A stretch of 35,994 bases of DNA from a virus. This document shows positions 957 to 35,687 of this stretch, piece after piece (within the stretch, counting starts at the first letter, position 1; the number at the start of each line of letters is the position of its first letter). The notes under the pieces are model-generated. The model was not told the origin of the DNA. It saw only the letters and a list, made by a program, of their open reading frames with translations, and did not search any database. Position numbers and translations under genes: made by a program. Where the stretch lies: IMG/VR virus record IMGVR_UViG_3300037010_000841, positions 1 through 35,994 of that record; one strand, written 5' to 3'.

Positions 957-2927
957 TTACCGTCGCATCGAAATGTAAGGCCGCCCGGTGCTGGTGTAAC
1001 TATAAACGAGATCGTCCCGCTCGGAATCCAGCGCGTAGCCGCTCAAACTCGCATAACCAGACTCTAACGCCTGCGCAACGTGTTTGTAAACATTTTCTCT
1101 TACAGCGAACGACGCCGTTCCTGCCTCGCGGCAATACCCGCCCGCCAGGGCGTTGAGCGTCCACGTCGCCTCGGGGCTAACAGTGAATGTGGGCGCATTG
1201 TTGCGCCGCAGCCGCAACGCCGAGTCTAGGCTTTCCTGCGCATCAACAATCCGCTTCCCGGTGCGGTATTGCAGCCGCAGCCGCTTAAGCGTTGCAGGCA
1301 AGTTCGACGCATCGTTAATGAGCGTGCGGTCATACGGCACCACAATCTGCGGCACTTTACCTGTGGGGATCTCGTGGCTGACGGACATAAGCACGGCGCG
1401 CAAGCTATCGTCGAGCGACCCCTCGATCACCCAATCCTTGACGACGCTCAACAGGCCGTCCTGCACGAACGCGAGGACTGCAAGAAGCATACCAGGCGTG
1501 GCGTTCACGAACACATACCAATCCGCTCGGGCGTTGGGCACGCGATGCTGGATATGGTCTGAACTGAACGCCGCATAGACCGGCATCCCTGGCCGAAGCC
1601 TAAGCATGTAGGCCAGCGCGTTGACAATGTCGACACGCCCGAGAGGGAAGCTGGCAAGCTCCGCCTCAAGGTCAGGCAGCGGCTTGAGAAACTTAACCTC
1701 ATGCGCTCTGAAGAACGGCTGCAACCCCTTGATGAAGTTGACTTTGTCGCGCGGGGCCTTGACCGGCTGTAGTGGCAGGATGTCCGCCCTGCGCACCATT
1801 TCCGCCCGAATGGGCTGCAAGAGCCACTGGTTGAGGCCATCTTCTTCGACGGCCACTGTCATCGGGTGATGCGCGTCGTTGAGCCGGAATAGATACTCAA
1901 TCTGCTCCGAAGGCGTGTGGAACCCACCGATCGCCTCGTGGACGTGTAGCTCGTTGCCAACCCACGACCCAACGACGTAGCCCGTCCGCGCACTTGTCGC
2001 CCGGTTTGTCGTTCGTGCCGGGTCAACGATCAAGATGCGCGGGATGTAAAGATGCGCAGGTGACGGCGCAGCGTAAATAATGTCGTTGCGGTCGAAGATG
2101 CTGGCTACCGCATCCATAGGCTTGAGCAAGTATTCCTGACTGAACCCCGCAAGGTCGCCGTCCGTCCTGAACTGCTCATAAAGCTCATTGATCTTCTCCA
2201 GCGAGAACCGCGCAGGCCACATGGGCACGCGGTCAGGTTCTACGCCGGTGTAGATGGGGAAGCTCAAGCACTTCCAGTTTGCATTGCGCTTGAGTTCCTC
2301 AATCATGGAGTTCTCGTGCAACGGCGTGCCATTGACGCGGATACGCGCTTTGGGGTCGCACGCGGGGACAAGCTCGCGGGTGAACCACTGCCACACCTTG
2401 CGCCGAGCTTCTGGCGTGGCTACTGATTCCCGATCCTCTAGATCGTCAATCAGCACAAGGTCAGGGCGCATGTTGCGCGTCACTTCCTTCGCCCCGCGCA
2501 CGCTCTGCCCGGCGCCGAACGCTTGTACGCGCACCCCGTTGGACAGGGTAATGTCATTCTCCGTCCACGTCGCTCCGCGCACGGAGCCGAACATTGCGCC
2601 GATCTTCTCGTTGTTCTCTAGCTCGTGCTTGATACTCGCCAACCGATCACACGCACTGCTGTAGGTGTTTCCGACAAGCAGAATGTATTGCGCCTCCTGG
2701 AACAGCGCAGCAAGAGTGAGATATTCTTCTGCAAGTGTTGACTTCCCGCCGCCTCGGAACACCTCGATGAGCACGCGGGGATGCGGGTCATCCCACGCAG
2801 CAACGATCTGCTTGTGGAACGCAGGCGTCTCGTCTGGATGCCGATGCGCAAAGATGTAAGAGAGTGCAAACTGCTTGTCCGCTTGCAACTCCGCAATCAG
2901 TTCGACTAGTGGCGACGCATTAGACAT
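957..2927 (-). CDS. terL: Terminase large subunit (packaging ATPase-nuclease)
   Basis: This motor protein pumps DNA into the procapsid and cuts concatemers. Visible ATPase motifs are Walker A FRGGGKST near residues 57-64, Walker B LVLIDDLED near 156 and coupling motif NGTP soon after. An RNase H-like nuclease follows, with ILIVDPART near residue 298, AVEEDG, and a closing acidic motif in VDIVNALAYML. After that come about 200 further residues, longer than most terminases, that look like a second folded domain. The ATG at 2927 was chosen over an in-frame GTG at 2942 because the GTG lies inside a terminator-like hairpin; neither start has a good Shine-Dalgarno. The portal gene follows on the same strand. 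Confidence 0.95.
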   Translation of the reverse strand: MSNASPLVELIAELQADKQFALSYIFAHRHPDETPAFHKQIVAAWDDPHPRVLIEVFRGGGKSTLAEEYLTLAALFQEAQYILLVGNTYSSACDRLASIKHELENNEKIGAMFGSVRGATWTENDITLSNGVRVQAFGAGQSVRGAKEVTRNMRPDLVLIDDLEDRESVATPEARRKVWQWFTRELVPACDPKARIRVNGTPLHENSMIEELKRNANWKCLSFPIYTGVEPDRVPMWPARFSLEKINELYEQFRTDGDLAGFSQEYLLKPMDAVASIFDRNDIIYAAPSPAHLYIPRILIVDPARTTNRATSARTGYVVGSWVGNELHVHEAIGGFHTPSEQIEYLFRLNDAHHPMTVAVEEDGLNQWLLQPIRAEMVRRADILPLQPVKAPRDKVNFIKGLQPFFRAHEVKFLKPLPDLEAELASFPLGRVDIVNALAYMLRLRPGMPVYAAFSSDHIQHRVPNARADWYVFVNATPGMLLAVLAFVQDGLLSVVKDWVIEGSLDDSLRAVLMSVSHEIPTGKVPQIVVPYDRTLINDASNLPATLKRLRLQYRTGKRIVDAQESLDSALRLRRNNAPTFTVSPEATWTLNALAGGYCREAGTASFAVRENVYKHVAQALESGYASLSGYALDSERDDLVYSYTSTGRPYISMRR

Positions 2928-2952
2928 AAAAAGACGGCCCACAAGTGGGCCG
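2928..2952 (-). terminator. Rho-independent terminator abutting the terL start
   Basis: On the minus strand CGGCCCA, a 4-base loop and TGGGCCG form a 7-bp GC-rich stem followed directly by TTTTT and then the ATG of terL. It sits between the small gene at 2991-3161 and terL, so leftward transcripts would have to read through it to express terL. It may act as an attenuator or as an antitermination control point. Confidence 0.7.
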
Positions 2953-8366: not shown

Positions 8367-8863
8367 ATGAAAACATACGAAAACTTCTGGGCCAAAGTTC
8401 AGGTTAGAAATCCAGACGAGTGCTGGGAGTGGCAAGGTGCAAAGACTAGCAGCGGGTACGGCAACCTGTCGTGGTGCGGGGTGCAAGTTCAGGCACATCG
8501 GGTTGCGTATTTTTTTTGCGTAATGGCGATATTGAACTGTCTACCAACTTCCAACAGGAGGGTGTAGCCAAGCAATACCGCAAGTTCGTACTCCATAAAT
8601 GCGACAACAGATTGTGCTGCAATCCAGACCATTTGTTTCTTGGGTCAATGCGAGAAAACCTATTGGATGCCTATCAGAAAGGTAGGAAGGTGCAACCCAA
8701 AAGCCAACACGCAAACGCCAAGCTAACCGCAGCACAAGTAATCGAGATACGGCAACGTTACGACGCTGGTAGAAACACGCAACAGGAGCTTGCTGCGGAG
8801 TTCGGAGTGACTCAGCGTACAATCAGTTTGGTTGTCAGACGTAAATCCTACAAGGATGTTTAA
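8367..8863 (+). pseudogene. HNH homing endonuclease, reading frame broken at a T8 run
   Basis: The first frame starts at 8367 (GGAGA upstream) and reads MKTYENFWAKV, then ECWEWQGAKTSSGYG and AHRVAYFF, the start of a NUMOD/HNH endonuclease, but stops at 8567. The second frame continues the same protein as LRNGDIE, then VLHKCDNRLCCNPDHLFLG (the HNH motif) and a C-terminal helix-turn-helix (QQELAAEFGVTQRTISLVV) to 8863. The junction is a run of eight T at 8510-8517; six T would give AYFLRNG, the usual spacing of this family. It could be a decayed gene, a sequencing error, or a site of polymerase slippage. It lies immediately upstream of DNA polymerase, a common homing-endonuclease location. Confidence 0.85.
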
Positions 8864-15652: not shown

Positions 15653-18121
15653 ATGATCCAAGACTATCTACGGTTAGGGTTAGCACTTGTCGCTATCCCA
15701 CGAGACGAAAAAGGGCCGAGAGAGCAGGGGTGGGTGGAGCGAAGGTGCGAGGACGTTGCGCGGCTCGAACGCGGCAATGTAGGTGTCAACCACGCGCTTT
15801 CTGGCACTTGCTGTCTTGACGTTGACGATTCCACGCTGTTTAAGGCGTGGTGGACTGCGCAGGGGTTCCCGCCCGATGCGCTCAAGCAGATTCTTGCTGC
15901 GTGCCCCGTCTGGACGAGCGGCAGGCCGCGCCGCTGGAAAGCGCTATTCCGCGCGCCAGAGGGCATGCGCACGGTCGCCCTGCATCAGCATGGGTTTGAA
16001 CTGCGTGCGGCTGGCGGCCAGGACGTGTTGCCCCCATCGGTTGTTGTCGACGATGCAGGCACTCCGTGGCAATACCGCTGGATCAACGGTCTGCCGCCGT
16101 CGCTGGACGACGTGCCGGTGCTGCCTGCAAAGCTGCTTGCCAAGGCGCAGGCAACTCCACGCCAGGAATGTCCGCTGGATGCGCCAACAGGAATGTTGGC
16201 GGCAGTCTTGAGCGTCGTGCCGCAGGGCGGGCGCAATGACTATCTGAGCCGGGCGTGCTACGCCAAGATCAAGGCTGGCGTCGAAGGCGATGACCTAGTG
16301 GCCGAAATGCTGGCGCTGAACGAATCCAAGTGCGAGCCGCCACTGCCCGAGGCCGAGGTGTTGGCGATCGTTCGCGGCAAAGAGCGGCGCGGCATCGAGC
16401 CAGCACCAGAGGTTGAGCAATGGAAGGCACTGGCACCGTTCATCCCCGATGGATATCGCCTTCATGCAGGTGCTTTGCAGGTCAAGGTAAAAGATGAAGA
16501 AAGCGGCGAGGCGACATGGGACACCCTGTTGCACTACCCGGTTGCCGTGACGAACGTGATTCGCATCCCTGGCGTGCAAGAGCAGCGGTACATCGAAGTG
16601 ACGTTGCTCAACCCGCACGAGGCCAAGCACCACATCACAATGGCGCAACTGAGCCGGGAGTTCGAGCAGGCGCTGAACAACATCGGCGTGAGCGTGTTCG
16701 GCAAGCGTGCGACGGGGGTCAAGGCGTTTTTGATCGCATCGAAAGAAAAACTGGAGCGGGAGCAAAAAGTGACGGACTCATACAAACAATTCGGCTGGCA
16801 GCCTGACGGCAGTTTTCTTGTCGGCAACCGGCTTTACCGCGCAGGCCAAGTGCCCGTACTGGTGCATCTGGAGCCGCACGCTGCGCAATTGGCGCGGTAT
16901 ATGCCTTTGGTCGGGGACGTGAACGCATGGCGCGAGGCGGCGCTGCCTCTGCTGTGCGGCGACAGCCCCAAGCAAACCTTCGCGTTCATGTGCTCGCTGG
17001 CCGCGCCGTTGATGAAGCTGTCGGGCGAGCGTGGCGGCATCCTGTCGCTGGTCGGCCCTTCAGGGCAAGGCAAGTCCACTGTGCAGAGTGCCATAACGAG
17101 CGTGTTCGGGACGCAAGAGTCTGCGTTTAGTAAAGCGCAGGACACTGATAACGCGCGGGTGGCGTTCCTCTCCATCATGCACAACCTACCGGTGCAGGCC
17201 GAAGAACTGACGAAGCTTGACGGCCAAAGGCTCGCCGTGCTCGCCTATGACGTGTCCGAAGGCCGGGATAAGCGGCGGCTCGACCGCTCGGGCCACATGC
17301 GCGAAATGGCCCCGGAGTGGCATACCATCCTCACGTCGAGCAGCAACACATCCATCATTGAGAAACTGATGGATTTGGGCGCAATCCCGGAGGCTTTCCG
17401 CGTGCTGGAAATGCGCGTGGTGTTGCCGCCCAACGCTCGCCTGCAAGACGGCGACATGATGAAGCGCCTGCTGATGGCGAACGCCGGAACCGCCGGGCAT
17501 GTCCTGGCGCAATACTTGGTCGACCACAAAGACCTAATCGCGCAGGGGCTGGAAAAAGTCAAAAACGCGCTGCAAGCGGCGATTCAGGCACCGACTGAAG
17601 AGCGCATCCGCGTCAACATGGTCGCTGGCGCGGCCATGATGGCCCGCATTGTGAAGGCCGCGCTCGGCATCCCCGTCGATGCGAACGTCGTGCTGGAATT
17701 TGGCCGTGACCTGATCCTGGCTGAACGGGAGCATCGCAGCGCCTACGAGTCAGACGCGACACAAACGCTTACAGACTTCATCAACGAGAATATCGCGCAT
17801 TGCGTGCAGACCAACATGCAGAACGTGGTGTTCGACCTGATCCGCACCACGCCGCCCTACACCATGCGATATGAAGCGCCTAGCCGCACGCTCTACGTTT
17901 CTTACTCGCTCATGCGTCGCTACGCGTTGCAGCGGCGGCTAGATTGGGCGGATGCGCAACGCGAACTGCGCAAGATCGGAGTGCTGCGCGGCTTGCGCAA
18001 AGTGACGCTGACCAAGGGCATGACGGGCGTTCCCCCGCAAGGGCAGACGCAATGCCTCGAAATCGACACCGACAGGCTTGGCTTCGAGTTCAAGCAAGAG
18101 GGCGAAGCTCAAGCGGCGTGA
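15653..18121 (+). CDS. Primase-polymerase/helicase replication protein
   Basis: The protein is 822 residues. The N-terminal about 190 residues look like a bifunctional primase-polymerase domain (NVGVNHALSGTCCLDVDD with the acidic pair, then WKALFRAP and GGQDVLPPSVV). A PriCT-like helical domain follows (SRACYAKIKAG, LNESKCEPPLPEAEVLAIV). The C-terminal DUF927-type helicase has Walker A GPSGQGKST near residue 467 and Walker B-like AEELTKLD. It should prime and unwind the genome for the family A polymerase. No Shine-Dalgarno is visible before the ATG at 15653, and a terminator lies just upstream, so expression may be low. Its end overlaps the convergent frame at 18109 by 13 bases. Confidence 0.88.
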   Translation: MIQDYLRLGLALVAIPRDEKGPREQGWVERRCEDVARLERGNVGVNHALSGTCCLDVDDSTLFKAWWTAQGFPPDALKQILAACPVWTSGRPRRWKALFRAPEGMRTVALHQHGFELRAAGGQDVLPPSVVVDDAGTPWQYRWINGLPPSLDDVPVLPAKLLAKAQATPRQECPLDAPTGMLAAVLSVVPQGGRNDYLSRACYAKIKAGVEGDDLVAEMLALNESKCEPPLPEAEVLAIVRGKERRGIEPAPEVEQWKALAPFIPDGYRLHAGALQVKVKDEESGEATWDTLLHYPVAVTNVIRIPGVQEQRYIEVTLLNPHEAKHHITMAQLSREFEQALNNIGVSVFGKRATGVKAFLIASKEKLEREQKVTDSYKQFGWQPDGSFLVGNRLYRAGQVPVLVHLEPHAAQLARYMPLVGDVNAWREAALPLLCGDSPKQTFAFMCSLAAPLMKLSGERGGILSLVGPSGQGKSTVQSAITSVFGTQESAFSKAQDTDNARVAFLSIMHNLPVQAEELTKLDGQRLAVLAYDVSEGRDKRRLDRSGHMREMAPEWHTILTSSSNTSIIEKLMDLGAIPEAFRVLEMRVVLPPNARLQDGDMMKRLLMANAGTAGHVLAQYLVDHKDLIAQGLEKVKNALQAAIQAPTEERIRVNMVAGAAMMARIVKAALGIPVDANVVLEFGRDLILAEREHRSAYESDATQTLTDFINENIAHCVQTNMQNVVFDLIRTTPPYTMRYEAPSRTLYVSYSLMRRYALQRRLDWADAQRELRKIGVLRGLRKVTLTKGMTGVPPQGQTQCLEIDTDRLGFEFKQEGEAQAA

Positions 18122-18387
18122 TTCTCAATCAGCGTCTGTGACCGCACGGCCTTGAGCCTGCGCACTTCGTCCAGGATCACCGCGATAGCCGCGTCCGACT
18201 GCGCACGGAACCGGCTCTCGTCGGCCTTGATCGCCATATTGATCGCGCTGGCGGCTGCATCCTTCTGGATGGATAGCAGTCGCGCATAGTCGTTGTCCCA
18301 AGGCGCAGGGTTGAGGTCAAGAATGTCCTCGATCTTGCGCAGCGCCTTGTTGACGATCCGGTTGAGGTGGTTGGTCTGCTCGTTGTT
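18109..18387 (-). CDS. Start-less frame resembling a small terminase subunit
   Basis: Downstream of the ATP-grasp stop, the -1 frame stays open for 92 sense codons to TGA at 18109: helical, beginning around NNEQTNHLNRIVNKALRKIE and containing QKDAAASAINMAIKADESRF and a closing ILDEVRRLKA. This pattern (Q..AA..IN...K.DE.RFR, then an Ile/Leu-rich helix) resembles small terminase proteins of some podoviruses as I remember them. No ATG, GTG or TTG lies in frame between 18237 and 18649, and the ATG at 18235-18237 would leave only 42 residues. Possible explanations are a non-standard start, re-initiation, or ribosomal frameshifting from the ATP-grasp gene. Coordinates mark the frame after the upstream stop, not a proven start. 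Confidence 0.5.
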   Translation of the reverse strand, partial: NNEQTNHLNRIVNKALRKIEDILDLNPAPWDNDYARLLSIQKDAAASAINMAIKADESRFRAQSDAAIAVILDEVRRLKAVRSQTLIENHAA

Positions 18388-19697
18388 TACAGTTTCAGGC
18401 TCGTTGCATAGCCCATCTTCTGCAACTTGGGCAACTGGGAATTGAGGCGCTTGCCAATGTCCGTCCGATACATCGGGGAGTTCGGCACCGACAACGACTC
18501 CAAGGCTTTGTAGGCTTGCTCCCGGCTTGCGTCCACTGTTGGCGCTGCCGCCGCTGCTATGAGCAGATACGTCCCGGCGCTCACGAGGTGCATTTCCTCC
18601 ACGATCTTGTTTCCGCGTTCCACTGGCACCTTCGCTGCTTTCAGTTCGCAAGGGTGAATGTGGCTGCTCACCGCATCCAGGTTGTAGATCGGCGTGCCCG
18701 ACACTTCCTTGCGGCTCAGCTTGTTGTAAGGAAAGTCCGGGATCGCCAGCACGACCCCCGTTGCCGTTAGGCCCGTCAAGAAGTTCGTCCAGATCGATGA
18801 TCCGTTTAGGCTTTCGAGCATCCATTTTGCTGTGCTCCGGTGTAGTTGCTGCTGAATGTTGAAGATCGGCCAACCTGGGCGCATCGTAAACTCTAGCGGC
18901 CACGGGTTGCCTTTGTCGTCAATGATGACCGCAACATCCACGAACCCAATGTGCCCGCTGCGCACCAGATAGTCCTCCAGCGGCTTGAGCACTTTGTCGG
19001 CCAGCTTGGACTTCTCGGTGTAAGTGACGACAGTCCCCATTTCGCCTGTGTTCGGGCCTTTGTCGTCGTTCATCAGCTTCTTGTGCTCGAAGTTCTCGCA
19101 CCAAGGGCTTGCAAACCCGCCCGGCCCGACCCATGCGCCCACGGCCATTTCGATGCCGGGTTGGAACTGCTGCACGATGAACGCGGGGACGTGCTTACCG
19201 GTGCGCTTCCACTTTTCCAGCATGTAGACCATATCTGCCGGCCCTTTGCTGACGTAGGACAAGCTGCGGTCTGCGTCCCCAAATGGCTTGGAAACGTAGC
19301 GCCCCATATTGGCCTTGACGTAGGCGATGGCCTTGTCGTAGCTGGTAAACGTCTCGCCTTCGATGAGCGGTATGCCGTGCGCTTTGAGCACATCCATGCC
19401 CACCTGCCGGTTTAGCTCCCACTGCGCAGTGAAGCTGTTGGCCCCGTAAATCGGATACCCGCGCTGTCGCCACTTGTCCAGGTCGGCCATGTAGACCGCA
19501 TTGTCTGGCAGGAACACCAAGTCCGCCCAATTCATGTGCTGCTCCCAATGCTGCACCTTCTGGACAAGATGATCCCCAACAGTAATCATCCCATCGGGCT
19601 TGTTGCGGATGAACCACCGGACTTGTGCGCCCTCGGCCATGCTGCGTAGACAAAAGTCGAGCGCCAACGCCGACGGGTCGATGACGAGAATTTTCAT
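18387..19697 (-). CDS. PurD-like ATP-grasp ligase
   Basis: The protein is 436 residues, full length for phosphoribosylamine-glycine ligase. The Rossmann-like N-terminus reads MKILVIDPSALALDFCLRSM. The ATP-grasp core has YVSKPFGDADRS near 135, FIVQQFQPGIEMA near 172 and GPNTGEMG near 212, matching the GPNTGGMG loop of PurD. Then comes EFTMRPGWP near 267, where PurD has EFNCRFGDP. The C-terminal domain keeps ATGVVLA and MYRTDIGKRL. The Asn that helps bind magnesium and the following Asp are replaced, so the acceptor substrate may differ from phosphoribosylamine. The start overlaps the ejection-protein stop (ATGA). It lies at the end of the late block, apart from replication genes. Candidate roles are purine supply, DNA base modification or small-molecule synthesis; none is shown. 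Confidence 0.85.
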   Translation of the reverse strand: MKILVIDPSALALDFCLRSMAEGAQVRWFIRNKPDGMITVGDHLVQKVQHWEQHMNWADLVFLPDNAVYMADLDKWRQRGYPIYGANSFTAQWELNRQVGMDVLKAHGIPLIEGETFTSYDKAIAYVKANMGRYVSKPFGDADRSLSYVSKGPADMVYMLEKWKRTGKHVPAFIVQQFQPGIEMAVGAWVGPGGFASPWCENFEHKKLMNDDKGPNTGEMGTVVTYTEKSKLADKVLKPLEDYLVRSGHIGFVDVAVIIDDKGNPWPLEFTMRPGWPIFNIQQQLHRSTAKWMLESLNGSSIWTNFLTGLTATGVVLAIPDFPYNKLSRKEVSGTPIYNLDAVSSHIHPCELKAAKVPVERGNKIVEEMHLVSAGTYLLIAAAAAPTVDASREQAYKALESLSVPNSPMYRTDIGKRLNSQLPKLQKMGYATSLKL

Positions 19698-21415
19698 TTG
19701 GAGGGCGCAGATGACGGATCGTATGAAGAAAAGGACGGAAGTGCTCCGGGTAAGGTAGACACCATCGCTCGATTTCCTGCCTGAATGAGCTTCCCGGTTA
19801 AAGGGTCAACCATCTGGCCCGATTCTAGTAGTCTTTGTCCCATTGGCGACCCATACAATGTGCGTCCGGCTGCGCCGAGGCCAACTGCAGTGCCGATTTT
19901 TGGGAGAACGTTGAAAGACCCCAAAGACAAATGCACTGGCGCCCCCGCCGTATGCGCGCCGGCCAGGAGCAGGTTCAGCATTTCAGCGTCCCCTTCCTCT
20001 CGCGCCTGCGGCACAAGGTTTAGCTGCGCAGCGCGTCGCACGGTCTGCGTCAACGGATCATCGGTGATGAGCGTCTTTGCCTGCGCACTTGTAGATTTTG
20101 CGTCGTTCATCGCCGCTGCCCACACTTTGACGGGGTTGATCTTGCCGGTCTGCAAAAAATTTATGTCATTGGCTGTTGCATCAAGAAGCAACGCATTGGC
20201 GCGATATTGGTTGTTAAATGTTCGGTACGCCTTGTTAATGTCGGGGCTAAACTGTTGGACAGGTAGCTCTAGCGCGTCGATGACCGAGCTTAGCTGGCGC
20301 TGGACGTTCGGCTCTTTTTGCGCGTAGCGCATAGCTTTAAGTTGCCGCACAATGGCGAACCAATCTTTTGCAGGAATAGGCTCTCCGTTTGCGGCGGCCT
20401 CGAACGCTTTTGATAATCCCGTAGCGCCTATAACCTCTTCGGCAATAGCCGGTTGCCTTTCCACCAAACTGCGCACAGCAGACGCTGTTGTTGTTGGAAT
20501 TTTGACCGTCTTTCCGGCGAGTTTTGACGCAAATGCGTTCGAGATGGCGCTGTTTGCCTGCGCCAAAGAGTCGCTATCGATTTTGACGCCTTTGGGGATG
20601 CCGGCCAACTCCCCGAGCGTCTGCTCATAGAGGTTGTAGTTGTGCGCGGCTGCGGAACCTTTCCCCGCGTTGATAAGCTGCTGCGCACCTTTGCCGAAGC
20701 CCGTTGCCGCGCTCGGCATGATCTTGTAGCCTTGCTCTTTAGCCTCTTGGATGGCACGTTCGGCGGCAGGCGTTGCTGCTTTACCTCCTAGCAGCTTAGA
20801 TAGCCCGGAGCCGACGCCGCTTAGTACGCCGCCGGCTGCTGCACCAACTTCGGCGGCTTGGTTTTTCTCGCCTTGAGGCGCTGTTAGGTACGACTGCAGC
20901 CCGCTAAGAGCGGCTTGGCCTGCCGTTCGCATCCACAAGGCACCCTTGATTTCGGGCTGTGCCAGCATAGTGAGGGCTTGTGTCGTCCCTTGGCCGAGCG
21001 CCTGTCCAGTCGGTGAACCCAAATTGCCAGCGGCTTGCGCCTCTTTTTGCGCATATTGCTGCACTGCCGGGATAGGGATTGATCCTACAGCGTTCCAGAA
21101 GGGCACGTTCATGCCGCCTACGACGCCTTTAGCGCCTTGTATTGCAGTGTCCAGCCAATTGTGCCCTGCGGATTGCGGCGCGGGTGTGCTCGGCGGCATG
21201 ACGGCTTTACTGCTCGGTTGCGCCCCCGGCGTCGGAGGCGCAGGCGCGGCATCAAGACCGACGTAGATAGGATTTTTTGCCGCCGCGCTACTGGCGCTAC
21301 TGGCGCTACTGGCGCTACTGGCGCCACTGGCGCTACTGGCGCTTGGGGCAGGCGTAGAACTTTGCCTCGGGGCAGGCGCGTCGGTCAAACCAACATAAAC
21401 GTCCGATGCCGCCAT
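19694..21415 (-). CDS. Ejection (internal virion) protein with repetitive N-terminus
   Basis: The protein is 573 residues with GGAG seven bases before the ATG. Residues 1-75 are low complexity (Ser/Ala/Pro) and include a peptide seen twice, VYVGLTDAPAP and IYVGLDAAPAP, on either side of a Ser-Ala repeat. The rest is Ala/Gln/Gly-rich and helical, with a hydrophobic glycine-rich stretch (GVLSGVGSGLSKLLGG) near 200. Three consecutive proteins of this type after lysis genes resemble the P22 gp7/gp20/gp16 set, which forms a channel for DNA across the envelope. The assignment rests on composition and position. Confidence 0.65.
   Translation of the reverse strand: MAASDVYVGLTDAPAPRQSSTPAPSASSASGASSASSASSASSAAAKNPIYVGLDAAPAPPTPGAQPSSKAVMPPSTPAPQSAGHNWLDTAIQGAKGVVGGMNVPFWNAVGSIPIPAVQQYAQKEAQAAGNLGSPTGQALGQGTTQALTMLAQPEIKGALWMRTAGQAALSGLQSYLTAPQGEKNQAAEVGAAAGGVLSGVGSGLSKLLGGKAATPAAERAIQEAKEQGYKIMPSAATGFGKGAQQLINAGKGSAAAHNYNLYEQTLGELAGIPKGVKIDSDSLAQANSAISNAFASKLAGKTVKIPTTTASAVRSLVERQPAIAEEVIGATGLSKAFEAAANGEPIPAKDWFAIVRQLKAMRYAQKEPNVQRQLSSVIDALELPVQQFSPDINKAYRTFNNQYRANALLLDATANDINFLQTGKINPVKVWAAAMNDAKSTSAQAKTLITDDPLTQTVRRAAQLNLVPQAREEGDAEMLNLLLAGAHTAGAPVHLSLGSFNVLPKIGTAVGLGAAGRTLYGSPMGQRLLESGQMVDPLTGKLIQAGNRAMVSTLPGALPSFSSYDPSSAPSK
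21285..21338. repeat. Six tandem 9-base repeats (GCGCTACTG)
   Basis: There are five exact copies and one variant (GCGCCACTG at 21321-21329) within the N-terminal coding part of the ejection protein, encoding alternating Ser-Ala-Ser on the minus strand. Such short in-frame repeats expand and contract by slippage. Confidence 0.9.
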
Positions 21416-21418
21416 GCT

Positions 21419-23125
21419 TTACTCCGGGTAAATTCTGTGCGCGATTAAATACCGCTGTGCGGCGTCTGTGTCGCCGTTAAAATGCTGTTTAGCGTAGTCC
21501 GCAAAGGTTTTACTGTCCATTAGCTTAAACCCAACATATTGAGCCGCCAAAGGTTTATTTTTTGCGGCCTCAATAAGTTTGGACTGCGGCAAGCTCTGGT
21601 AGTATTGGAGCGTGTCTTGAAATGCGTTTCCTGCCTGCTTCGTGCCAAATTGAACCGCGTCGGCAACCCCGTTTATCGCAACGCCTTGGGCCGGGTCGAA
21701 AACTTTCTCTGCGCTCTTAAACGCATAGCCTGTCATCTTACCAAACCCCGTTACAATCCCGTACTCGCGGGCCATTTCATTGACTAACGCGTCGTATTGG
21801 GCCACAAGTTGCCCTTGTGCGGAACCCGTAGGCGCAAGTTTTCGGTCAATTATTAACCGCCCTTTGTTGGTTGTAGCGATGCCGTTTAATTGCAACTGCT
21901 TGGCAATCTCTTGGACTTGGTCAAACTGTTTCTCCAACGTTTTTGCGCTAGTCTGAAATTGTGCGTAGCGGTTTTGCAACTGCGTAGCTGTAGCTTGGCT
22001 GCTTTTAGCCTGCTGGCCGATGGCGGGAATAGCGCCTGGGGGCAGCCCTAGCTGTTGCTGCAAGTTTGCTTCTTCCCGCCGCGCAGCAACCCCTTGGGGG
22101 CCGCCGACGGGCAGCTTCCCGCCGCCAAGCCAGCTTTGGATAACCTGTTGCTGCATCCCTGATAGGTTAGGGTTTGGTGAGTTTGCGTCGGCCGCCTGCG
22201 GAGCAGCGCCTGTCGCTCCAGCGTCGCCATCAGAATAATAGCGTGCCTTAGCATTATGTTCGTGGGCCTGCGCTTCGGCTTTATCAATCTGCGATGGTAG
22301 CAATGCGTCGTCGTGTTGATTTTTCTGCTGCCGCAAAAGCGCGTTCACGGTCTTGAAAAAATCCGTATCGACCAACCCTGCGGCGCGGATTGCGGCATCG
22401 GCTTGCTTTGTTAGCGTCGGGTTAATCATGCTCATCGTGAGGCCAAGCTCGCGGTCGCTCATGTTTGGGTGCGCCTTGAGCAAATCCGCAGCGGTTCGAG
22501 CAGCGAGGTTAATGGGCTGGTTGTTCTGAATGAGCGCCATCATGCGCCCATAAGTTCCGGGTGAAAGCGGCGAATCAGCATCTTGACCTTGCTGCGTGGG
22601 CTGCGTGGGCGGGGCCGCTGCGGGCGTCTGCCCCACACCGCGCCGTGCCATGTCGAGCAAGACACTCGCCGCAGCGTTCGGACTCATCTGCTTCGCTTTG
22701 AGCGCAGCGGCGACTTGATCCGGGGTCGAAATGTGCCCAAACTGCTGCTTCGGGCCGAACGTAGGAACTGACTCTGCGCCCGGTAGCGGCACGGACTGTA
22801 TATTTCGAGGCGGAACAGGGGACGCCTGTGCCGTATCTACTGGCGGAAGCGGCTGCTGTGCGCTGTTCTGTCCGGGCACTGGAGCGGGAGCATAGTTATG
22901 ATCGGGCGGCGGGTTGTCTGCAAGGCTTCGGTAAAACCCCCCTGCGCCTTGCGTTGCAGCTAGGTAGTCTTGGAACTTCTGGCTGTCAATCTGACGCGCC
23001 AACGCACTGTTCGCCAGCAGGTTTTCTAGCTGCTGCTGTTGACGCTGGTTGACAATGTCTTGCTGGTTGGCGTCGTAGGCGCCCCCCAGCATGTTGCCAA
23101 ACCGCAAGTAGCTGCCGATGTTCAT
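21419..23125 (-). CDS. Ejection (internal virion) protein, Gln/Ala/Pro-rich
   Basis: The protein is 568 residues with AAGGA before the ATG. The N-terminus MNIGSYLRFGNMLGGAYDA is followed by a Gln-rich helix, a Pro-rich linker (about 72-130), a helical middle, and a long coiled-coil segment near 345-420 (TLEKQFDQVQEIAKQLQLNG). Size, composition and place between two similar proteins suggest the second of three DNA-ejection proteins. It has no lytic transglycosylase motif that I can see. Confidence 0.65.
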   Translation of the reverse strand: MNIGSYLRFGNMLGGAYDANQQDIVNQRQQQQLENLLANSALARQIDSQKFQDYLAATQGAGGFYRSLADNPPPDHNYAPAPVPGQNSAQQPLPPVDTAQASPVPPRNIQSVPLPGAESVPTFGPKQQFGHISTPDQVAAALKAKQMSPNAAASVLLDMARRGVGQTPAAAPPTQPTQQGQDADSPLSPGTYGRMMALIQNNQPINLAARTAADLLKAHPNMSDRELGLTMSMINPTLTKQADAAIRAAGLVDTDFFKTVNALLRQQKNQHDDALLPSQIDKAEAQAHEHNAKARYYSDGDAGATGAAPQAADANSPNPNLSGMQQQVIQSWLGGGKLPVGGPQGVAARREEANLQQQLGLPPGAIPAIGQQAKSSQATATQLQNRYAQFQTSAKTLEKQFDQVQEIAKQLQLNGIATTNKGRLIIDRKLAPTGSAQGQLVAQYDALVNEMAREYGIVTGFGKMTGYAFKSAEKVFDPAQGVAINGVADAVQFGTKQAGNAFQDTLQYYQSLPQSKLIEAAKNKPLAAQYVGFKLMDSKTFADYAKQHFNGDTDAAQRYLIAHRIYPE

Positions 23126-23134
23126 TTTTCGTCC

Positions 23135-24124
23135 TTAGCCCATGTAGGCGAGTGGGTCGCCCGACATGGTGGTGCCTCCGCTGCTTCCGCCAACGCCCGA
23201 CCCCCAATTTTTAATTGCGTCGCCAACGGCGTTGCCGATTGGCTTGGCGATCGTTGCGCCAAAGGCTTGCGACGCTTGGTTGAGTTGGCCTTGCTGCCCA
23301 AGCTGCGAGCTTGGGCTTCCAAGCCCTTGGTATGTGTTGTAGTCAATAATCTGCTGCTGGATCGGCACGTTGGCCTGCTGGCCCATCTGCCCAAAACTGT
23401 TCATCATTCCGAGCAGCGAGTTTGCCGAGTTCATCTGCGTCTGGTAGGGCATCGCCGCAGACTGGTTTATCAAATTCGATCCTTGCGTGCCGATGCTCGC
23501 CCCAACTGCACCCAATTGTCCCGCAGATTGATTGAGCGAGCCAATCCCGCGCACCCCGGCCAGTTGTCGGTTCAGTAGGTTGTCTTGCCAGTTTTGGTTG
23601 AATAGCTGGTTTTGCTGCGCCGCGATCTGCGCACCAGCTCCGCTCATACTTAACCCCCGCGCGGCGAGGTCTGCGTTGACTTGGTTTGCGTTCTGCGCCC
23701 GTAGGTAGTTGTAAAGCGGGCTTTGCGGGTCGAAGGCCGACTGAATAAGTTGATCTTCTAGCCCCGGAATACGGCCCATTTGGCCGTAAAGCTGGTTTGC
23801 TGCGTTGGCTGCCTGCGAGCCTTGCTGCATCCCATACTGCGCCGCCTGCTGCGCGCCAGAAAGAGCTTGGCCGTAGTAGGGGCTGTAAAGCGCTCCGTAT
23901 ACGGCGTTTTGCGCGTCCGGCAACACCTGCCGGTAGGTGTTGTTCGCCCCGATTTGCGGGATCAAATTCAGTTCGTTGCCCGCTGCTACGTCTAAGTTCG
24001 GCGGAAGGTATGAGCCGCCCTGGTAGCCACCTGACGAACTGCCGCCGCCAAACAGGGCGTCCCCGACAACGGCTGAGGCGACTCCGCCGATAAGTGGCCC
24101 CGCGATTGCGCCGATAAGAGGCAT
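23135..24124 (-). CDS. Ejection (internal virion) protein, Gly/Gln/Asn-rich
   Basis: The protein is 329 residues with AAGGAG before the ATG. It opens with a glycine-zipper-like hydrophobic helix (PLIGAIAGPLIGGVASAVVG), able to insert in a membrane, then becomes rich in Gln, Asn, Ala and Gly with many short helices (QNANQVNADLAARGLSMSGA). This is typical of the smallest podovirus ejection protein, such as P22 gp7. It is the first of three such genes, after the cupin gene. Confidence 0.65.
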   Translation of the reverse strand: MPLIGAIAGPLIGGVASAVVGDALFGGGSSSGGYQGGSYLPPNLDVAAGNELNLIPQIGANNTYRQVLPDAQNAVYGALYSPYYGQALSGAQQAAQYGMQQGSQAANAANQLYGQMGRIPGLEDQLIQSAFDPQSPLYNYLRAQNANQVNADLAARGLSMSGAGAQIAAQQNQLFNQNWQDNLLNRQLAGVRGIGSLNQSAGQLGAVGASIGTQGSNLINQSAAMPYQTQMNSANSLLGMMNSFGQMGQQANVPIQQQIIDYNTYQGLGSPSSQLGQQGQLNQASQAFGATIAKPIGNAVGDAIKNWGSGVGGSSGGTTMSGDPLAYMG

Positions 24125-29640: not shown

Positions 29641-31332
29641 TTAGATCGGCCCCTCGATTGCCATCCAGCTTGCCGGAGCATTTTGAACGACCGTAGCTTG
29701 CGCAGGCGCTTCGCCACCGACATAAACAACGTCTCCTGCATTCAAGTGAATGACCGCTGTCGCCTGGATAATGATTCCCACTTGCGCGGCTGGCGTGTAC
29801 GTCGAGTTTGCGGCAACAACGGGCGTCGCTCCGTTTACTGCTACCCCAACAAAAACCATCCCCGCGCCGGCTGCGTTCACTTGAAGGCTTATGTATACTC
29901 GATAGTAACCGTACAACGAAACCTTTACTCCCCCGCCAGACGTTGAGAGCGTCGTCCCATAAGAGTCCGTCTTCTGCATAGGAACGATGGACGGCGAAGA
30001 GGAGAGCGTTGCGGACGACGAAGGAACAAGAAACATCTGGTTCGGCGGGAACGCTGGCACCGAAATGTAATCTGGCACACTGCCCCACCAACAGCCAAGG
30101 TCTACAAACTGCGTCTGAGAGTCCCCATTAAGGAACGGTCTGGTTGAGCTTGGAGAATAATCCCCGTAGTTCTGAAATGAACAGCCAATCAAGAGGATCG
30201 TGTTAGGACCTCGCGAAACAATGTTGTTCTGCGTGTAGTTCGTACTGCTAACACGATTGAAGTTGCACCCTTGAATGATATGCGTCATCCTTTGAGTGCC
30301 AGTGTTCACGATTTTAATGTCTGCATCGCCGTTGTTTAGCTCGAAGTAGACATTCTTGATCGTTACGCCGTTCGCCCCTTCTACGCTGGTAACTGTAATG
30401 TTTAGACCAGCGGTTCCAGAAACACCCATCACGCCGTTGTTGCTTACTTGGCCGCCCTCGATCGTCAAGTTGGCTGCGTTATCTGTCACCAGCAAGCCGT
30501 TAGCAGTGTTTCGATCAAGGATTACGTCTTGAAACGTCGAAGCATTCAGATGCGTAAAACCGTCCGACCCTTTGGCGCTAACAATACCGTTGACGTTGCC
30601 TTCAAAAAGGCACTTTCGCAGGGTCAAGTATTCAACGCTGTCGAGATACAACCCGATGTTCAGTTGCTCGAACCGCAGATTTTCGAGCGTTTGCATTTCA
30701 ACAACGTCGAGATACAACCCATTGACGTTGTGAATGTTGTTTCTTCCGCTAATGCAGAAGCCATGATACCGCACCCCCATAATTGATGCCGTTGCGGTCG
30801 AAGACGCCTGGATTGCATACATGCCCGTCGTCGTCGGGCAAAGGATGCTGTTCTGCGGGCCAGCACCATAGAGCGCACCGGGCATTGGCTGGCCGTCGAA
30901 GGCGTACATGCCGCCATTTGCGTAGCTTATCTGCAATGCCCCTACGCCAGCCGTTCCAGACAGCTTGTATTTTCCTGCCTCTAGCTTCCAGTTTGTCCCA
31001 ATAATCGAGACAAGTTTTTGCAATGCGGCAGTATCGTCGGCGACGTTGTCCCCAACAGCCCCTTCCGTTGCCTTTGCAGAAGGGTCAATCGCCCCTAGGC
31101 CCCCTCCACCTCCGCCCCCTCCAACGATAAGCTGCTGAACTTGGTTCAAAGGAACAGCAGCGGATGGAACCGTTGCAGGAGCGACAAGAAACTGTTGCGA
31201 AGCGTTGCCGCCTACAGGTGCGGCGTTTGCGTTCACGTCTTGGACGATCTGCGCAAAATTGGCCTGCACCGGGGTTGCATCTACCGGATCGCCGTTTTTA
31301 ATCGTGTAAACCAGAGGGTTAATGATAGCCAT
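29641..31332 (-). CDS. Tailspike with right-handed beta-helix
   Basis: The protein is 563 residues with GGAG before the ATG. The N-terminal adaptor (about 1-65: PLVYTIKNGDPVDATPVQAN, QDVNANAAPVGGN) is shared with the fibre at 27670. An eight-glycine hinge follows near 72-80, then GDNVADDTAALQKLV, the usual entry to a pectate-lyase-like beta-helix. The helix region has many NG/NN turns (GLYLDSVEYLTLRKCLFEGN). The C-terminal about 120 residues form a separate beta domain. It probably binds or degrades host surface polysaccharide; catalytic residues cannot be assigned by eye. Confidence 0.85.
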   Translation of the reverse strand: MAIINPLVYTIKNGDPVDATPVQANFAQIVQDVNANAAPVGGNASQQFLVAPATVPSAAVPLNQVQQLIVGGGGGGGGLGAIDPSAKATEGAVGDNVADDTAALQKLVSIIGTNWKLEAGKYKLSGTAGVGALQISYANGGMYAFDGQPMPGALYGAGPQNSILCPTTTGMYAIQASSTATASIMGVRYHGFCISGRNNIHNVNGLYLDVVEMQTLENLRFEQLNIGLYLDSVEYLTLRKCLFEGNVNGIVSAKGSDGFTHLNASTFQDVILDRNTANGLLVTDNAANLTIEGGQVSNNGVMGVSGTAGLNITVTSVEGANGVTIKNVYFELNNGDADIKIVNTGTQRMTHIIQGCNFNRVSSTNYTQNNIVSRGPNTILLIGCSFQNYGDYSPSSTRPFLNGDSQTQFVDLGCWWGSVPDYISVPAFPPNQMFLVPSSSATLSSSPSIVPMQKTDSYGTTLSTSGGGVKVSLYGYYRVYISLQVNAAGAGMVFVGVAVNGATPVVAANSTYTPAAQVGIIIQATAVIHLNAGDVVYVGGEAPAQATVVQNAPASWMAIEGPI

Positions 31333-32951
31333 CAGTTTGCTCCAATGTAGCGAAGCGCCTCGTAACGGAAGTTAATCCGCCCCAAGCGCAAATACGGGCC
31401 GCTGTTTCCAAAAAGAACGATTTGACACGTCTGAAAGACAAGCGGGGCAGAAAAGTACAACGGCGATATTGTGGAGTTGTAGGGGAAAGCCCCCCACACA
31501 CTGCCTGCCGCGCCCCACACAAGCCCAAGATTGCCCCATTTGGCTGGAGCAGTTATAGGGCGCAATGTCGCTTGGTTGAGGAGCTGCCCCTGGTCGTCTA
31601 ACACCTGTATGGTGTATGGCTGTAGCCCATTTACTGCCGCAACCGTCATCTCGACTGACGCCTTTTCAGCCATCGGCGGGTCTGGCTCGATCAAACTGCT
31701 AGTCATGTTGACGGCTAGCTGCACGTCGTTTTCAACAAAAACGTCTGTTGGGGAAGTGTAGGCGTTGCTCTGAAACAGTTTTGCGCCGGCGCTGTTGACC
31801 GCAATAACGAACGAGTTGCCGAGCGGGGTAATCACGTCTGCGGGGAACGTATGGGGGCCATTCCACTTGCCGACCTTGAGGGAGAACCAATACTCAAACC
31901 GACCGAGCACGTCCGTTGTCGTCACCGTATCAAGCGAGATACGATACGTATCAGCACTGTAGGCTGCGCAGGCGCGTGTGGGCTGCGTGCAGTTGAAGAA
32001 CGGATACACCACGTCAGGGTTTGGCTCCGTCACGGCCATGCTCAACGTCGGGATGGTGCGAATCCCGTCCGCCGCCATGAACATGACGCCCGCAGGGGTC
32101 GGAACCGCTGTTCGCGGCGCGGAACAGCCGACACTAGCAGTAATCTGGTTCAGCGCAAGGTTGCCGCCAGTCGTTGACCCGCCATAGCTCCAGTCGCCCG
32201 TGATCTGCCAAATTGAGTTCGCCTTGAACGCGATCAGCGCGGACAAAATACCTTGCGTTGCAGTTGAGATGCCTTGCGGCACAAAAACAGTGATCGGCTC
32301 GGTGCTTGCGCCAAGCGTCAACACTTGCCCCGCGTTGGTCTGCCGCAACGGAAGAAGCGAGTCACTGAAGTAGGCTTGGTTTCCCACTGCATACCATGCA
32401 CGCCCATAAAACTGCGCAACCGCCGTTGGTACAGCGTTCAGCACGGCAGTCGTGCCGTTTATCATGTTGCCCGTGCTATAAGTCAGCGTCGTCAGGTCAA
32501 TCGTCCCGATTGGGCCGCTGGCCATCGTGTAGCCTGGATGCGTGATGACGATGTAGTTTCCGACAACCGCCATGCAAGGAGGCGTCCACGCGCCACTCGT
32601 GCCTTGCGTTACAGGAACATGGTTGCTGGTCACACCGCTAATGGGCACGAACGCATTAGTTGCCGTGTCGTAGCAAAACGGCTGGTCAAACCCAGGGTAA
32701 AGCCCGCTAGCGACCATGCCAAAGACACGCGTACCAACGGAAATCATGACAGACACAACGCCGGACGACGTAAACCCGTTGAACGTTGTGATAACTGTGC
32801 TGGCAGGGCGCGGGGCCAGCATACTGTTGCTGACCGGATCGTGAATCAGGTTCGTCAGCAGTTTGCAAGCGCCGGGGAACGCCAGCTTGCCGTCCCGCGC
32901 ATCAGATAGACCTACCGGCCTCCACTGGTAGATTGCCGGGTTGCGGAGCAT
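31332..32951 (-). CDS. Tail nozzle protein (gp10/gp12-like)
   Basis: The protein is 539 residues, beta-rich with propeller-like repeats. Its start follows the adaptor gene stop directly (TAAATG). The N-terminal segment GACKLLTNLIHDPVSNSMLA and later MFMAADGIRTI and GRFEYWFSLKVGKWNGP fit short-tail nozzle proteins of the T7 gp12/P22 gp10 kind, which form the distal tube and carry fibres. Order (adaptor, nozzle, spike) supports the call. Confidence 0.8.
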   Translation of the reverse strand: MLRNPAIYQWRPVGLSDARDGKLAFPGACKLLTNLIHDPVSNSMLAPRPASTVITTFNGFTSSGVVSVMISVGTRVFGMVASGLYPGFDQPFCYDTATNAFVPISGVTSNHVPVTQGTSGAWTPPCMAVVGNYIVITHPGYTMASGPIGTIDLTTLTYSTGNMINGTTAVLNAVPTAVAQFYGRAWYAVGNQAYFSDSLLPLRQTNAGQVLTLGASTEPITVFVPQGISTATQGILSALIAFKANSIWQITGDWSYGGSTTGGNLALNQITASVGCSAPRTAVPTPAGVMFMAADGIRTIPTLSMAVTEPNPDVVYPFFNCTQPTRACAAYSADTYRISLDTVTTTDVLGRFEYWFSLKVGKWNGPHTFPADVITPLGNSFVIAVNSAGAKLFQSNAYTSPTDVFVENDVQLAVNMTSSLIEPDPPMAEKASVEMTVAAVNGLQPYTIQVLDDQGQLLNQATLRPITAPAKWGNLGLVWGAAGSVWGAFPYNSTISPLYFSAPLVFQTCQIVLFGNSGPYLRLGRINFRYEALRYIGAN

Positions 32952-34349: not shown

Positions 34350-35687
34350 TTAGCCAAAGGTGGGCGAGAAGGCCGATCCGGACTCGATGCGCATGAAGAA
34401 CTGGTTGTTCATAATCATCGTGCCGTAAAAGACCTTCCAAGACACCACGCGGGTTTGGTTTTGCGGGTCAAACTTATCCGCGCCAGTCAGGTAGAACGTC
34501 TTGAGCGAGTCAAGCTCGACTTGCGCGAACGCTTCCTTACCAAAGATGAAGGTAGGATAGACCGTCACGCCAACTGCGGGGGCCGCAGGCGCGACTTGCG
34601 ACACGCCAAGGCCCGTGATAACCACAGTCGCGCCCGGAGGAATCTGCACCGCGTTGCCAGACAGCGGGCCAGTCGTCGGGCCGGAAGCAGACAAGCCAAG
34701 GTTTGCCGGGGGAGACACCGTGCCAACATACACGTTGTAGGTGTAGCCCGCCGTGCTCGGCACCGTAACGCTAATGGAGCCGGTCGGCCCCGTCACGCTG
34801 ATGCCCGCAGACGGCTGGTAGATCACCCTCTCGTAGTTGGTGTTGATATCCGAGGCCGTGACCTGAATGTAGTAAGTGCCCGTCGCCAGCGAACCCGCAG
34901 AACCTGCCGTGCCGGAGACAGCCGCCGCGCCCGTCCACGCCGGGACAAGGTTGGAGCGGGTAAACCGAACACCAGACCACTGACCGATCTCGTTGTTGTA
35001 CAGCTTGCCAACGTCGCTGTATTGCCATGCGGTAACAACAGTCGAGTTCTCGCGCAAGTCTTGCTCGACCAGCGGGTGGATGACGGCCACGTAGTGCGGA
35101 GCAGTCGCAGCGGTGACGCCCTTGGCGTTTGCAGCGGGCTTCGTCTTGATGTCCGTCTCGCCGCCGCCCATGTAATACCGCGCGCCGTTGGTGAACAGCG
35201 TACCCATTGCACGGTTAAGCTCGTGCGGAGTCAGAACAGAACTGTTCGTCAGGCTAGCGCGTGCGCCCACAGCGCCAACGTAGTTGACCTGCGTGCCGCC
35301 CATGATCGCATTGAACGTATTGCGCTCGATGGTTTCCGTCGCCTGCAAACCGATCAACTCCACGGCCTTCTTAAAGACCGGGTGGTGGATGGTCAGTTCA
35401 GCAACGTCCGTGATGCGGATCAGGTCGCCCCACTGCGCCACGGTGCCGGTCACTTGCGTAATCGTCATCGTCTCGCCAGCGGAGGGCACGCCTTCCGACA
35501 AGGTGGTGTAGGGCAGGGGAACACGCTCGTAACGGAACGCGTAGTAGGTCGTGCCCATGCCTTTCGGCAGTTCAACCCGCTCCGCGAGTTGAGACACAAC
35601 GATTTGACGCTGAGTCAATTCCAGCGTCTTTTTCTGAATGTATTTGCCGACGTCTGCGGCAAAGTTGGCAGCGGTGTTGTTTGCCAT
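34350..35687 (-). CDS. Major capsid protein, N4-gp56 family, with inserted Ig-like domain
   Basis: The protein is 445 residues with AAGGAT before the ATG. HK97-type features seen in the N4-gp56 capsid family include QRQIVVSQLAERVELPKGMG, TITQVTGTVAQWGDLIRITD, GLQATETIERNTFNAIMGG, HPLVEQDLRENS and a closing KVFYGTMIMNNQFFMRIESG. Residues about 255-365 interrupt the fold with a Gly/Thr/Ser/Val-rich beta domain (AGSLATGTYYIQVTASD, YNVYVGTVSPP), resembling an Ig or fibronectin type III fold that would project from the shell. A strong terminator follows. The upstream gene is scaffold-like. Confidence 0.9.
   Translation of the reverse strand: MANNTAANFAADVGKYIQKKTLELTQRQIVVSQLAERVELPKGMGTTYYAFRYERVPLPYTTLSEGVPSAGETMTITQVTGTVAQWGDLIRITDVAELTIHHPVFKKAVELIGLQATETIERNTFNAIMGGTQVNYVGAVGARASLTNSSVLTPHELNRAMGTLFTNGARYYMGGGETDIKTKPAANAKGVTAATAPHYVAVIHPLVEQDLRENSTVVTAWQYSDVGKLYNNEIGQWSGVRFTRSNLVPAWTGAAAVSGTAGSAGSLATGTYYIQVTASDINTNYERVIYQPSAGISVTGPTGSISVTVPSTAGYTYNVYVGTVSPPANLGLSASGPTTGPLSGNAVQIPPGATVVITGLGVSQVAPAAPAVGVTVYPTFIFGKEAFAQVELDSLKTFYLTGADKFDPQNQTRVVSWKVFYGTMIMNNQFFMRIESGSAFSPTFG

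What the first reader, a model, noticed from the sequence alone, without database searches (positions are those of the whole stretch)
18387..19697. Phage PurD-like ATP-grasp enzyme with altered active-site motif
The whole PurD length and fold pattern is kept, including the GPNTGEMG loop and the C-terminal MYRTDIGKRL segment. The catalytic EFNCRFGDP of the family as I know it reads EFTMRPGWP here: the Asn that helps bind magnesium and the Asp after it are gone. Both positions changing while the rest is kept points to a different acceptor rather than decay. The gene is in the late virion block, not with the replication genes. It may conjugate an amino acid or small molecule, for example in DNA modification or an anti-defence metabolite.
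Basis: partly seen in the sequence, partly recalled or inferred. Interest (0 to 1): 0.75.

Follow-up and report, generated by a model that had tools for sequence, protein, structure and literature searches.

The report
Phage PurD look-alike, different substrate
This phage gene looks like the purine-synthesis enzyme PurD but belongs to a separate, uncharacterised family, shared by many environmental phages and some archaea and bacteria, whose substrate pocket is rebuilt; viral genes counted as 'purD' may therefore include genes that do not make purines, and about half of the phage copies examined carry a second, overlapping reading frame.

Summary
Observation confirmed: window 18387-19697 (-) encodes a 436-aa protein of full PurD fold (AlphaFold pLDDT 94.8; Z 35.8 to GAR synthetase 2yw2) whose EFNCRFGDPE motif reads EFTMRPGWPI. 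The change is no quirk of one phage: E-x-T-x-R-x-G-[W/Y]-P recurs throughout the relatives checked, in phages and, as EFTxRFGYP, in archaea and bacteria. These form a well-supported clade apart from PurD; 11 of 12 genomes carrying a copy also hold a real PurD. Predicted ATP/Mg residues are mostly kept; the PurD glycine site is not (D212->E, E292->I), nor is the N-terminal GGREHA loop. dN/dS is about 0.05. Best reading: a working ATP-grasp carboxylate-amine ligase that is not PurD, substrate unknown. It is encoded directly after the DNA-ejection proteins; cultured cousins with the same late block lack it. DNA modification and anti-defence have no support here; modification of a late or virion protein is plausible, unproven. 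Unexpected: in 49 phage loci, window included, a helical domain follows the stop always in the -1 frame, and that frame stays open at least 270 nt back inside the ligase gene, beyond synonymous-codon expectation: a conserved nested ORF (18109-18825) or frameshift product of unknown function.

The parts
18387..19697 (-). PurD-fold ATP-grasp ligase, 436 aa, of a separate paralogous family (not PurD)
   Evidence: (80 bits against a 288-bit purD cut-off)
18867..18893 (-). EFTMRPGWP (residues 269-277), counterpart of PurD EFNCRFGDP; N->T, D->W, and the following E->I
19035..19058 (-). GPNTGEMG loop (residues 214-221); PurD has GPNTGGMG; E219 invariant in the family
18444..18473 (-). C-terminal MYRTDIGKRL segment (residues 409-418), shared with PurD; a helix special to the family follows
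18109..18825 (-). nested open reading frame in the -1 frame of the ligase gene: 238 aa from ATG 18825 (GGAG upstream) or 180 aa from TTG 18651; start, and internal initiation versus frameshift, unresolved
18109..18390 (-). conserved three-helix domain encoded by the nested frame after the ligase stop; no known family
19694..21415 (-). 573-aa gene directly upstream, 4-nt overlap (ATGA) with the ligase gene; third ejection/internal-protein position by synteny
   Evidence: synteny with PBR31 internal protein C
21419..23125 (-). 568-aa gene, second ejection/internal-protein position by synteny
23135..24124 (-). 329-aa gene, first ejection-protein position by synteny (its homologues lie there in 28 phage loci)
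   Evidence: the counterpart at this position in L105 hits PHROG 598 'DNA ejection'
34350..35687 (-). major capsid protein: shows that this is a phage late block
   Evidence: phrog_1357, 2.8e-42
957..2942 (-). large terminase, same strand
   Evidence: phrog_38, 7.9e-71

Best explanation
An ATP-grasp ligase of a separate, unnamed paralogous family of PurD. It most likely activates a carboxylate with ATP as an acyl-phosphate and joins it to an amine (class chemistry, inferred), but its substrates are not glycine plus phosphoribosylamine: the PurD glycine site and the PurD N-terminal loop are replaced by other conserved residues. The phage makes it late, from the cistron directly after its DNA-ejection proteins, so the likeliest target is a late or virion protein or a late metabolite (inferred, weak). 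Shown by computation: fold, separate clade, conserved altered site, purifying selection, position, coexistence with true PurD in cells. Inferred: catalytic activity, reaction type, target.
For: Fold: model pLDDT 94.8, pTM 0.92; 2yw2 GAR synthetase Z 35.8, 392 aligned, rmsd 3.2, 22% identity, other PurD structures 31-35.5, PurK/PurT about 24. Separate family: 80 bits against a 288-bit TIGR00877 cut-off; tree split with 100/100 support on both sides; 11 of 12 carrier genomes also hold a PurD (10 over the cut-off, one at 258.7 bits) while the family copy scores about 65-110. Catalytic parts kept: E94, R97 (K in PurD), K137, E183, K206, E269, R273; changed: E185->Q176, N285->T271, D290->W276, D212->E204, E292->I278 (PurD roles from PMC8880213). 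Twenty-seven columns invariant in 61 phage and cellular members, among them W57, E219, T271, R273, G275, P277. dN/dS about 0.05. Position: in 76 of 84 phage loci the gene directly upstream is on the same strand, in 66 it is 400 aa or longer, often overlapping; ejection-protein synteny.
Against: No activity is shown. N->T removes a presumed Mg ligand, and ATP-binding E185 is Q, so weakened or lost catalysis cannot be excluded by sequence. AaPurD D212->E is conservative. The target is unknown; cellular copies have no conserved gene neighbour that would hint at it.
Confidence: 0.68

Rival explanations
1. A true PurD carried as an auxiliary metabolic gene to raise purine synthesis during infection.
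For: PurD fold along the whole length; automatic annotation would call it so; purD has been reported as a viral AMG (PMC11097641, PMC12043954).
Against: Fails the curated purD cut-off, lies outside the PurD clade, lacks the EFNxRFGDPE motif, the GGREHA loop and two of the three charged glycine-site residues named in PMC8880213; family members coexist with real PurD.
Confidence: 0.03
2. A protein-modifying ligase: it joins an amino acid or small acid to a late phage protein, for example an ejection protein or the nested-frame protein.
For: Cistron directly after the ejection proteins with overlapping start in many loci; the late blocks of many relatives also carry a GNAT (20 phage loci) and an Asp/Asn-hydroxylase-like gene; conserved companion helical protein.
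Against: Position only; an acetyltransferase also occurs in the PBR31 block without a ligase; cellular members have no ejection proteins, so the ancestral reaction need not be of this kind.
Confidence: 0.3
3. A small-molecule ligase making a late metabolite (cofactor, osmolyte, anti-defence compound or modified-nucleotide precursor).
For: The nearest known relatives (PurD, PurK, PurT) act on small molecules; cellular members stand alone and are 44-71% identical to the Woeseiaceae member across bacteria and archaea, as expected of a transferable metabolic gene.
Against: No partner pathway gene in the phages; no base-hypermodification gene found in the window.
Confidence: 0.3
4. A catalytically dead PurD-fold protein used as a binding or virion component.
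For: Loss of a presumed Mg-binding Asn and of E185; a position among virion genes.
Against: The other predicted ATP/Mg residues are conserved or conservatively replaced, and the altered motif itself is strictly conserved in phages and cells.
Confidence: 0.12

Closest known systems
PurD / GAR synthetase (TIGR00877, EC 6.3.4.13; structures 2yw2, 1gso, 2xcl)
   Same: Whole fold, ATP-grasp core, K137/E183/K206/E269/R273 counterparts, C-terminal R-x-DIG segment
   Different: EFT-x-R-x-G-W-P instead of EFN-x-RFGDPE, GEMG instead of GGMG, no GGREHA loop, glycine-site D212 and E292 replaced, extra C-terminal helix; 22% identity; separate clade
Cellular proteins named 'phosphoribosylglycinamide synthetase C domain-containing protein' (e.g. 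Halarchaeum WP_123078225.1)
   Same: Standalone relatives of the same size recovered with a family member as query; the cellular clade built here from other such copies shares EFTxR-x-G, GEMG and lies on the same branch
   Different: The cellular clade has GYP instead of GWP, about 30% identical; no function described; no ejection-gene context; this particular Halarchaeum protein was not placed on the tree
PurK and PurT (ATP-grasp purine enzymes)
   Same: Next-best fold matches, Z about 24; from memory these too lack Asn in the E-x-N position
   Different: About 12% identity; other chemistry (carboxylation, formylation)
Phage ATP-grasp/amidoligase clusters (LUZ24-like, PMC3890496; Iyer et al. 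2009, known only by citation)
   Same: Phage-encoded ATP-grasp ligases of unknown target
   Different: 291-aa enzyme in the early region beside amidoligase and amidotransferase genes; none of those partners found here

Membership tests
PurD (phosphoribosylamine--glycine ligase) | GARS N/ATP-grasp/C fold over the whole length | tested here: met
PurD (phosphoribosylamine--glycine ligase) | Curated equivalog score (TIGR00877, 288 bits) | tested here: not met
   80 bits
PurD (phosphoribosylamine--glycine ligase) | EFNxRFGDPE catalytic motif | tested here: not met
   EFTMRPGWPI; E-x-T in the whole family
PurD (phosphoribosylamine--glycine ligase) | Glycine-binding residues D212, R287, E292 (AaPurD numbering, PMC8880213) | tested here: not met
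   E204 / R273 / I278
PurD (phosphoribosylamine--glycine ligase) | N-terminal GxGGREHA loop | tested here: not met
   IDPSALALDF
PurD (phosphoribosylamine--glycine ligase) | Falls inside the PurD clade | tested here: not met
   100/100 split
PurD (phosphoribosylamine--glycine ligase) | Makes GAR / complements purD | not testable with these tools
   needs the bench
ATP-grasp carboxylate-amine ligases (superfamily) | ATP-grasp fold with ATP/Mg residues | tested here: met
   K137, E183, K206, R97, E94, E269 present; Q176 for E185 and T271 for N285 deviate
ATP-grasp carboxylate-amine ligases (superfamily) | ATP-dependent ligation | not testable with these tools
   needs enzyme assay
Phage amidoligase/ATP-grasp modification clusters (LUZ24 type) | Amidoligase, COOH-NH2 ligase or GAT-II genes alongside | tested here: not met
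   none among the genes scanned in the window
Conserved nested (overlapping) gene | Second frame kept free of stops beyond synonymous-codon expectation where its downstream domain exists | tested here: met
   within-group loss L052 shows 4 stops, 4.3 expected
Conserved nested (overlapping) gene | Defined start codon / expression | tested here: inconclusive
   ATG at the W292 position 37/44 vs 21/53; NTG at the C350 position in 44/44 placed loci, 15 of them CTG
Programmed -1 frameshift product | Conserved slippery site | tested here: inconclusive
   junction and start-region sequences read by eye; no common heptamer or Z_ZZN tetramer seen; no systematic scan

The most novel reading that the evidence does not exclude
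A phage late-gene unit in which a PurD-derived ligase and a helical protein are encoded in overlapping frames of the same DNA, the ligase modifying the helical protein or the neighbouring ejection proteins (or both frames joined by frameshifting): a so far undescribed virion-protein modification system.
Probability: 0.1. Interest if true: 0.85.

Novelty: new variant of a known kind. Interest (0 to 1): 0.6.

Why it matters
Viral 'purD'/GART genes reported as purine AMGs (PMC11097641, PMC11360552, PMC12043954) may include it; the E-x-T versus E-x-N check separates the two quickly (whether those particular genes are of this family was not tested). If the enzyme is active, it is a new ATP-grasp specificity shared by phages, archaea and bacteria; prophage-like copies in sequenced Paraburkholderia isolates (L105-L109) make it testable. 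The nested frame is a separate, conserved case of overlapping coding.

Tried and rejected
Simple purD AMG: rejected on score, motif and tree. Decay: rejected, dN/dS about 0.05 and conserved motif. Amidoligase-type cluster: partners absent. DNA hypermodification: no supporting gene found. Function from the neighbours of cellular copies: no conserved partner. The low-identity 'phage' hits are probably bacterial purD on mislabelled or host contigs (judged from low identity and the purH-purD order in H6 and H10); not counted as family. No similar viral protein in BFVD by fold: best TM about 0.45/0.53 to 0.42/0.63. The helical domain: no Pfam or PHROG match worth the name, best PDB Z 5.6, best BFVD E 0.57, meaningless for helices; I first suspected a small terminase, without support. 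Reduced dS over the overlap as proof of coding: inconclusive, control pairs without the nested frame also drop towards the 3' end. Shine-Dalgarno upstream of the nested ATG: weak, 28/44 versus 21/53, partly explained by the conserved peptide. First genome scan with the single protein found nothing; the alignment scan succeeded. No paper on this family was found in the library.

Full report
WHAT THE WINDOW IS. The window is an IMG/VR virus record of 35,994 bases. On the - strand it carries large terminase (957-2942), capsid (34350-35687), SU10-type adaptor (32952-33620), tail proteins (29641-32951), holins, a GH108 lysin and a tail adhesin; on the + strand Prim-Pol/DUF927 primase, family A polymerase, SNF2 helicase and nucleases. 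Cultured phages with a related late block (found with the stabilisation protein of L105) are Rhodoferax phage P26218 and Xanthomonas phage PBR31; phage DSL-LC05 is another such genome. Their order is tail/stabilisation protein, sometimes an acetyltransferase, three internal/ejection proteins, then spike or lysis genes.

THE OBSERVATION. The ORF at 18387-19697 is real and starts ATGA-overlapped with the gene before it. It matches PurD in Pfam and the PDB. Two points need correction. The loop is GPNTGGMG in PurD, so GPNTGEMG is itself a change; its Glu is invariant in the family. And more is gone than two residues: the N-terminal GGREHA loop, and the Glu after GDP that contacts glycine in Aquifex PurD (PMC8880213).

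IT IS A FAMILY. In all but one of the relatives whose motif was read (L094), the motif is E-[FWV]-T-x-R-x-G-x-P, with W in phages and Y in cells, a few exceptions apart. Genome-contig copies of phage type (L100-L114) include loci in five Paraburkholderia genomes; in the loci whose neighbours I read (L105, L107, L110, L112) phage late genes lie around the copy, as in a prophage; others may be phage contigs binned with their host. The cellular type occurs in DPANN archaea, Halobacteria, Altiarchaeales, Patescibacteria, Woeseiaceae, Parvularculaceae, Gemmatimonadota and others. It is patchy: 13 of 148, 8 of 145 and 1 of 299 genomes sampled from the phyla of three carriers, each count including the carrier itself. 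Yet cellular members are 44-71% identical to the Woeseiaceae member across domains, which suggests transfer between lineages (inference).

IT IS NOT PURD. The window protein scores 80 bits on the purD equivalog model against a cut-off of 288. Ten of twelve carrier genomes have another gene over that cut-off, and an eleventh one at 258.7 bits; the family copy scores about 65-110. On a maximum-likelihood tree of 75 proteins PurD and the new family are separated with 100/100 support on each side; phage and cellular members are sister groups, apart from L111, a genome-contig copy with a GYP motif that falls inside the phage group.

HOW IT MAY WORK. The AlphaFold model (pLDDT 94.8) superposes on GAR synthetase 2yw2 with Z 35.8 over 392 residues. 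Mapped on Aquifex PurD, the ATP and metal residues are mostly kept (E94, R97 for K103, K137, E183, K206, E269), with Q176 for E185 and T271 for N285; of the glycine-binding charges only the arginine remains unchanged (R273), D212 is E204 and E292 is I278. My reading: the carboxylate is still held by the arginine while its amino group, if it has one, is not bound as in PurD; and the partner site in the N-domain is new. That E-x-N is not strict in ATP-grasp enzymes (PurK, PurT) is from memory. Activity is inferred, not shown. Close pairs give dN/dS of 0.02-0.07.

ROLE IN THE PHAGE. Of 84 phage loci with enough upstream sequence, 76 have a same-strand gene directly upstream, 66 of them 400 aa or longer, with the start often overlapping the previous stop. 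These are the ejection/internal protein genes by synteny; in L105 two of them hit PHROG 'DNA ejection' models. P26218, DSL-LC05 and PBR31 share the late block without the ligase: tblastn of the window protein against the phage collection gave one true family hit, MW202796 (44%), and no hit in these three. So the gene is an accessory of a fixed slot. GNAT and Asp/Asn-hydroxylase-like genes occur upstream in many of the late blocks. I rank modification of a late protein and synthesis of a late metabolite about equally; DNA modification and anti-defence have no specific support.

AN UNEXPECTED SECOND FRAME. After the ligase stop a helical domain of about 85 aa follows (model: three helices, pLDDT 85). 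A profile of it found the domain in 49 loci including the window: directly for 45 and, once the true gene ends were used, also for L078 and L101-L103, always in the -1 frame relative to the ligase, its start between 22 nt before and 23 nt after the ligase end, and with no hit elsewhere in the phage-type loci searched or in the cousin phages (one second weak stretch in L029 lies in the same ORF). A canonical start near the junction is missing in most (exceptions: L062-L070 TAATG, L071, L073). In the loci found by BLAST the -1 frame is open at least 277 nt back inside the ligase gene, while loci without the domain have about as many -1 stops as synonymous shuffles predict (the '-2' printed for the window is a coordinate slip, its true extent is 529 nt). 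The chance of an open frame over 270 nt is 0.08 for the window and 0.002 for L029; the product over 14 lineages is 2e-15, an overstatement because they share ancestry. On a tree made without the overlap region the carriers fall almost in one group of 43 rows; its member L052, which lacks the domain, has the expected stops (4 observed, 4.3 expected). L010, also scored as lacking it, is cut off before this region and says nothing.

WHAT THE SECOND FRAME IS. An ATG formed at the W292 position (window 18825) is commoner in carriers than non-carriers (37/44 versus 21/53; related sequences, so the Fisher p of 9e-6 is not a clean test). In all 44 carriers where I could place it, the codon at the C350 position makes NTG in the -1 frame, though 15 are CTG. 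L029, L054 and L100 have stops just upstream and an ATG with GAGG before it at that point, which favours internal initiation there. Frameshifting is not excluded. dS over the overlap did not decide.

CAVEATS. The carrier set of 44 was chosen partly by open-frame length; only the BLAST- and profile-defined sets are free of that. The coordinates of a few loci rest on the longest ORF. The viral-contig relatives are metagenomic and often fragments. The 'cellular' genomes are largely MAGs; the Paraburkholderia, Halogranum and Parvularcula ones are isolates.

Noticed in passing
window 18109-18825 (-): Conserved nested -1 reading frame over the 3' third of the ligase gene, ending in a helical domain of unknown family; start mechanism unresolved.
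   Followed up: partly
PMC11097641, PMC11360552, PMC12043954: Viral 'purD'/GART genes reported as purine AMGs could include this non-PurD family; the sequences behind those reports were not checked.
   Followed up: no
L044 4743-5333, L105 4859-5308, L061 683-1246, L096 3755-4675: GNAT and Asp/Asn-hydroxylase-like enzymes (some with cupin) encoded in the late block between stabilisation and ejection genes of many relatives; an acetyltransferase also in the cultured cousin PBR31.
   Followed up: partly
L112 genome (G012, Rhodanobacteraceae bacterium ZG21-1): No PurD over or near the purD cut-off was found in this assembly, although a PurE-type (AIRC) gene is present; perhaps an assembly gap.
   Followed up: no
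L115-L179: Cellular members: patchy in archaea and bacteria yet 44-71% identical to one reference across domains, standing alone without conserved neighbours; function unknown.
   Followed up: partly
phages collection H6, H7, H10, H12: Records listed as phage hold what look like ordinary bacterial purD genes (purH-purD order in H6 and H10); probably host sequence.
   Followed up: no
window 8471-8863 (+): HNH_3 endonuclease-like ORF overlapping the start of the family A polymerase gene.
   Followed up: no
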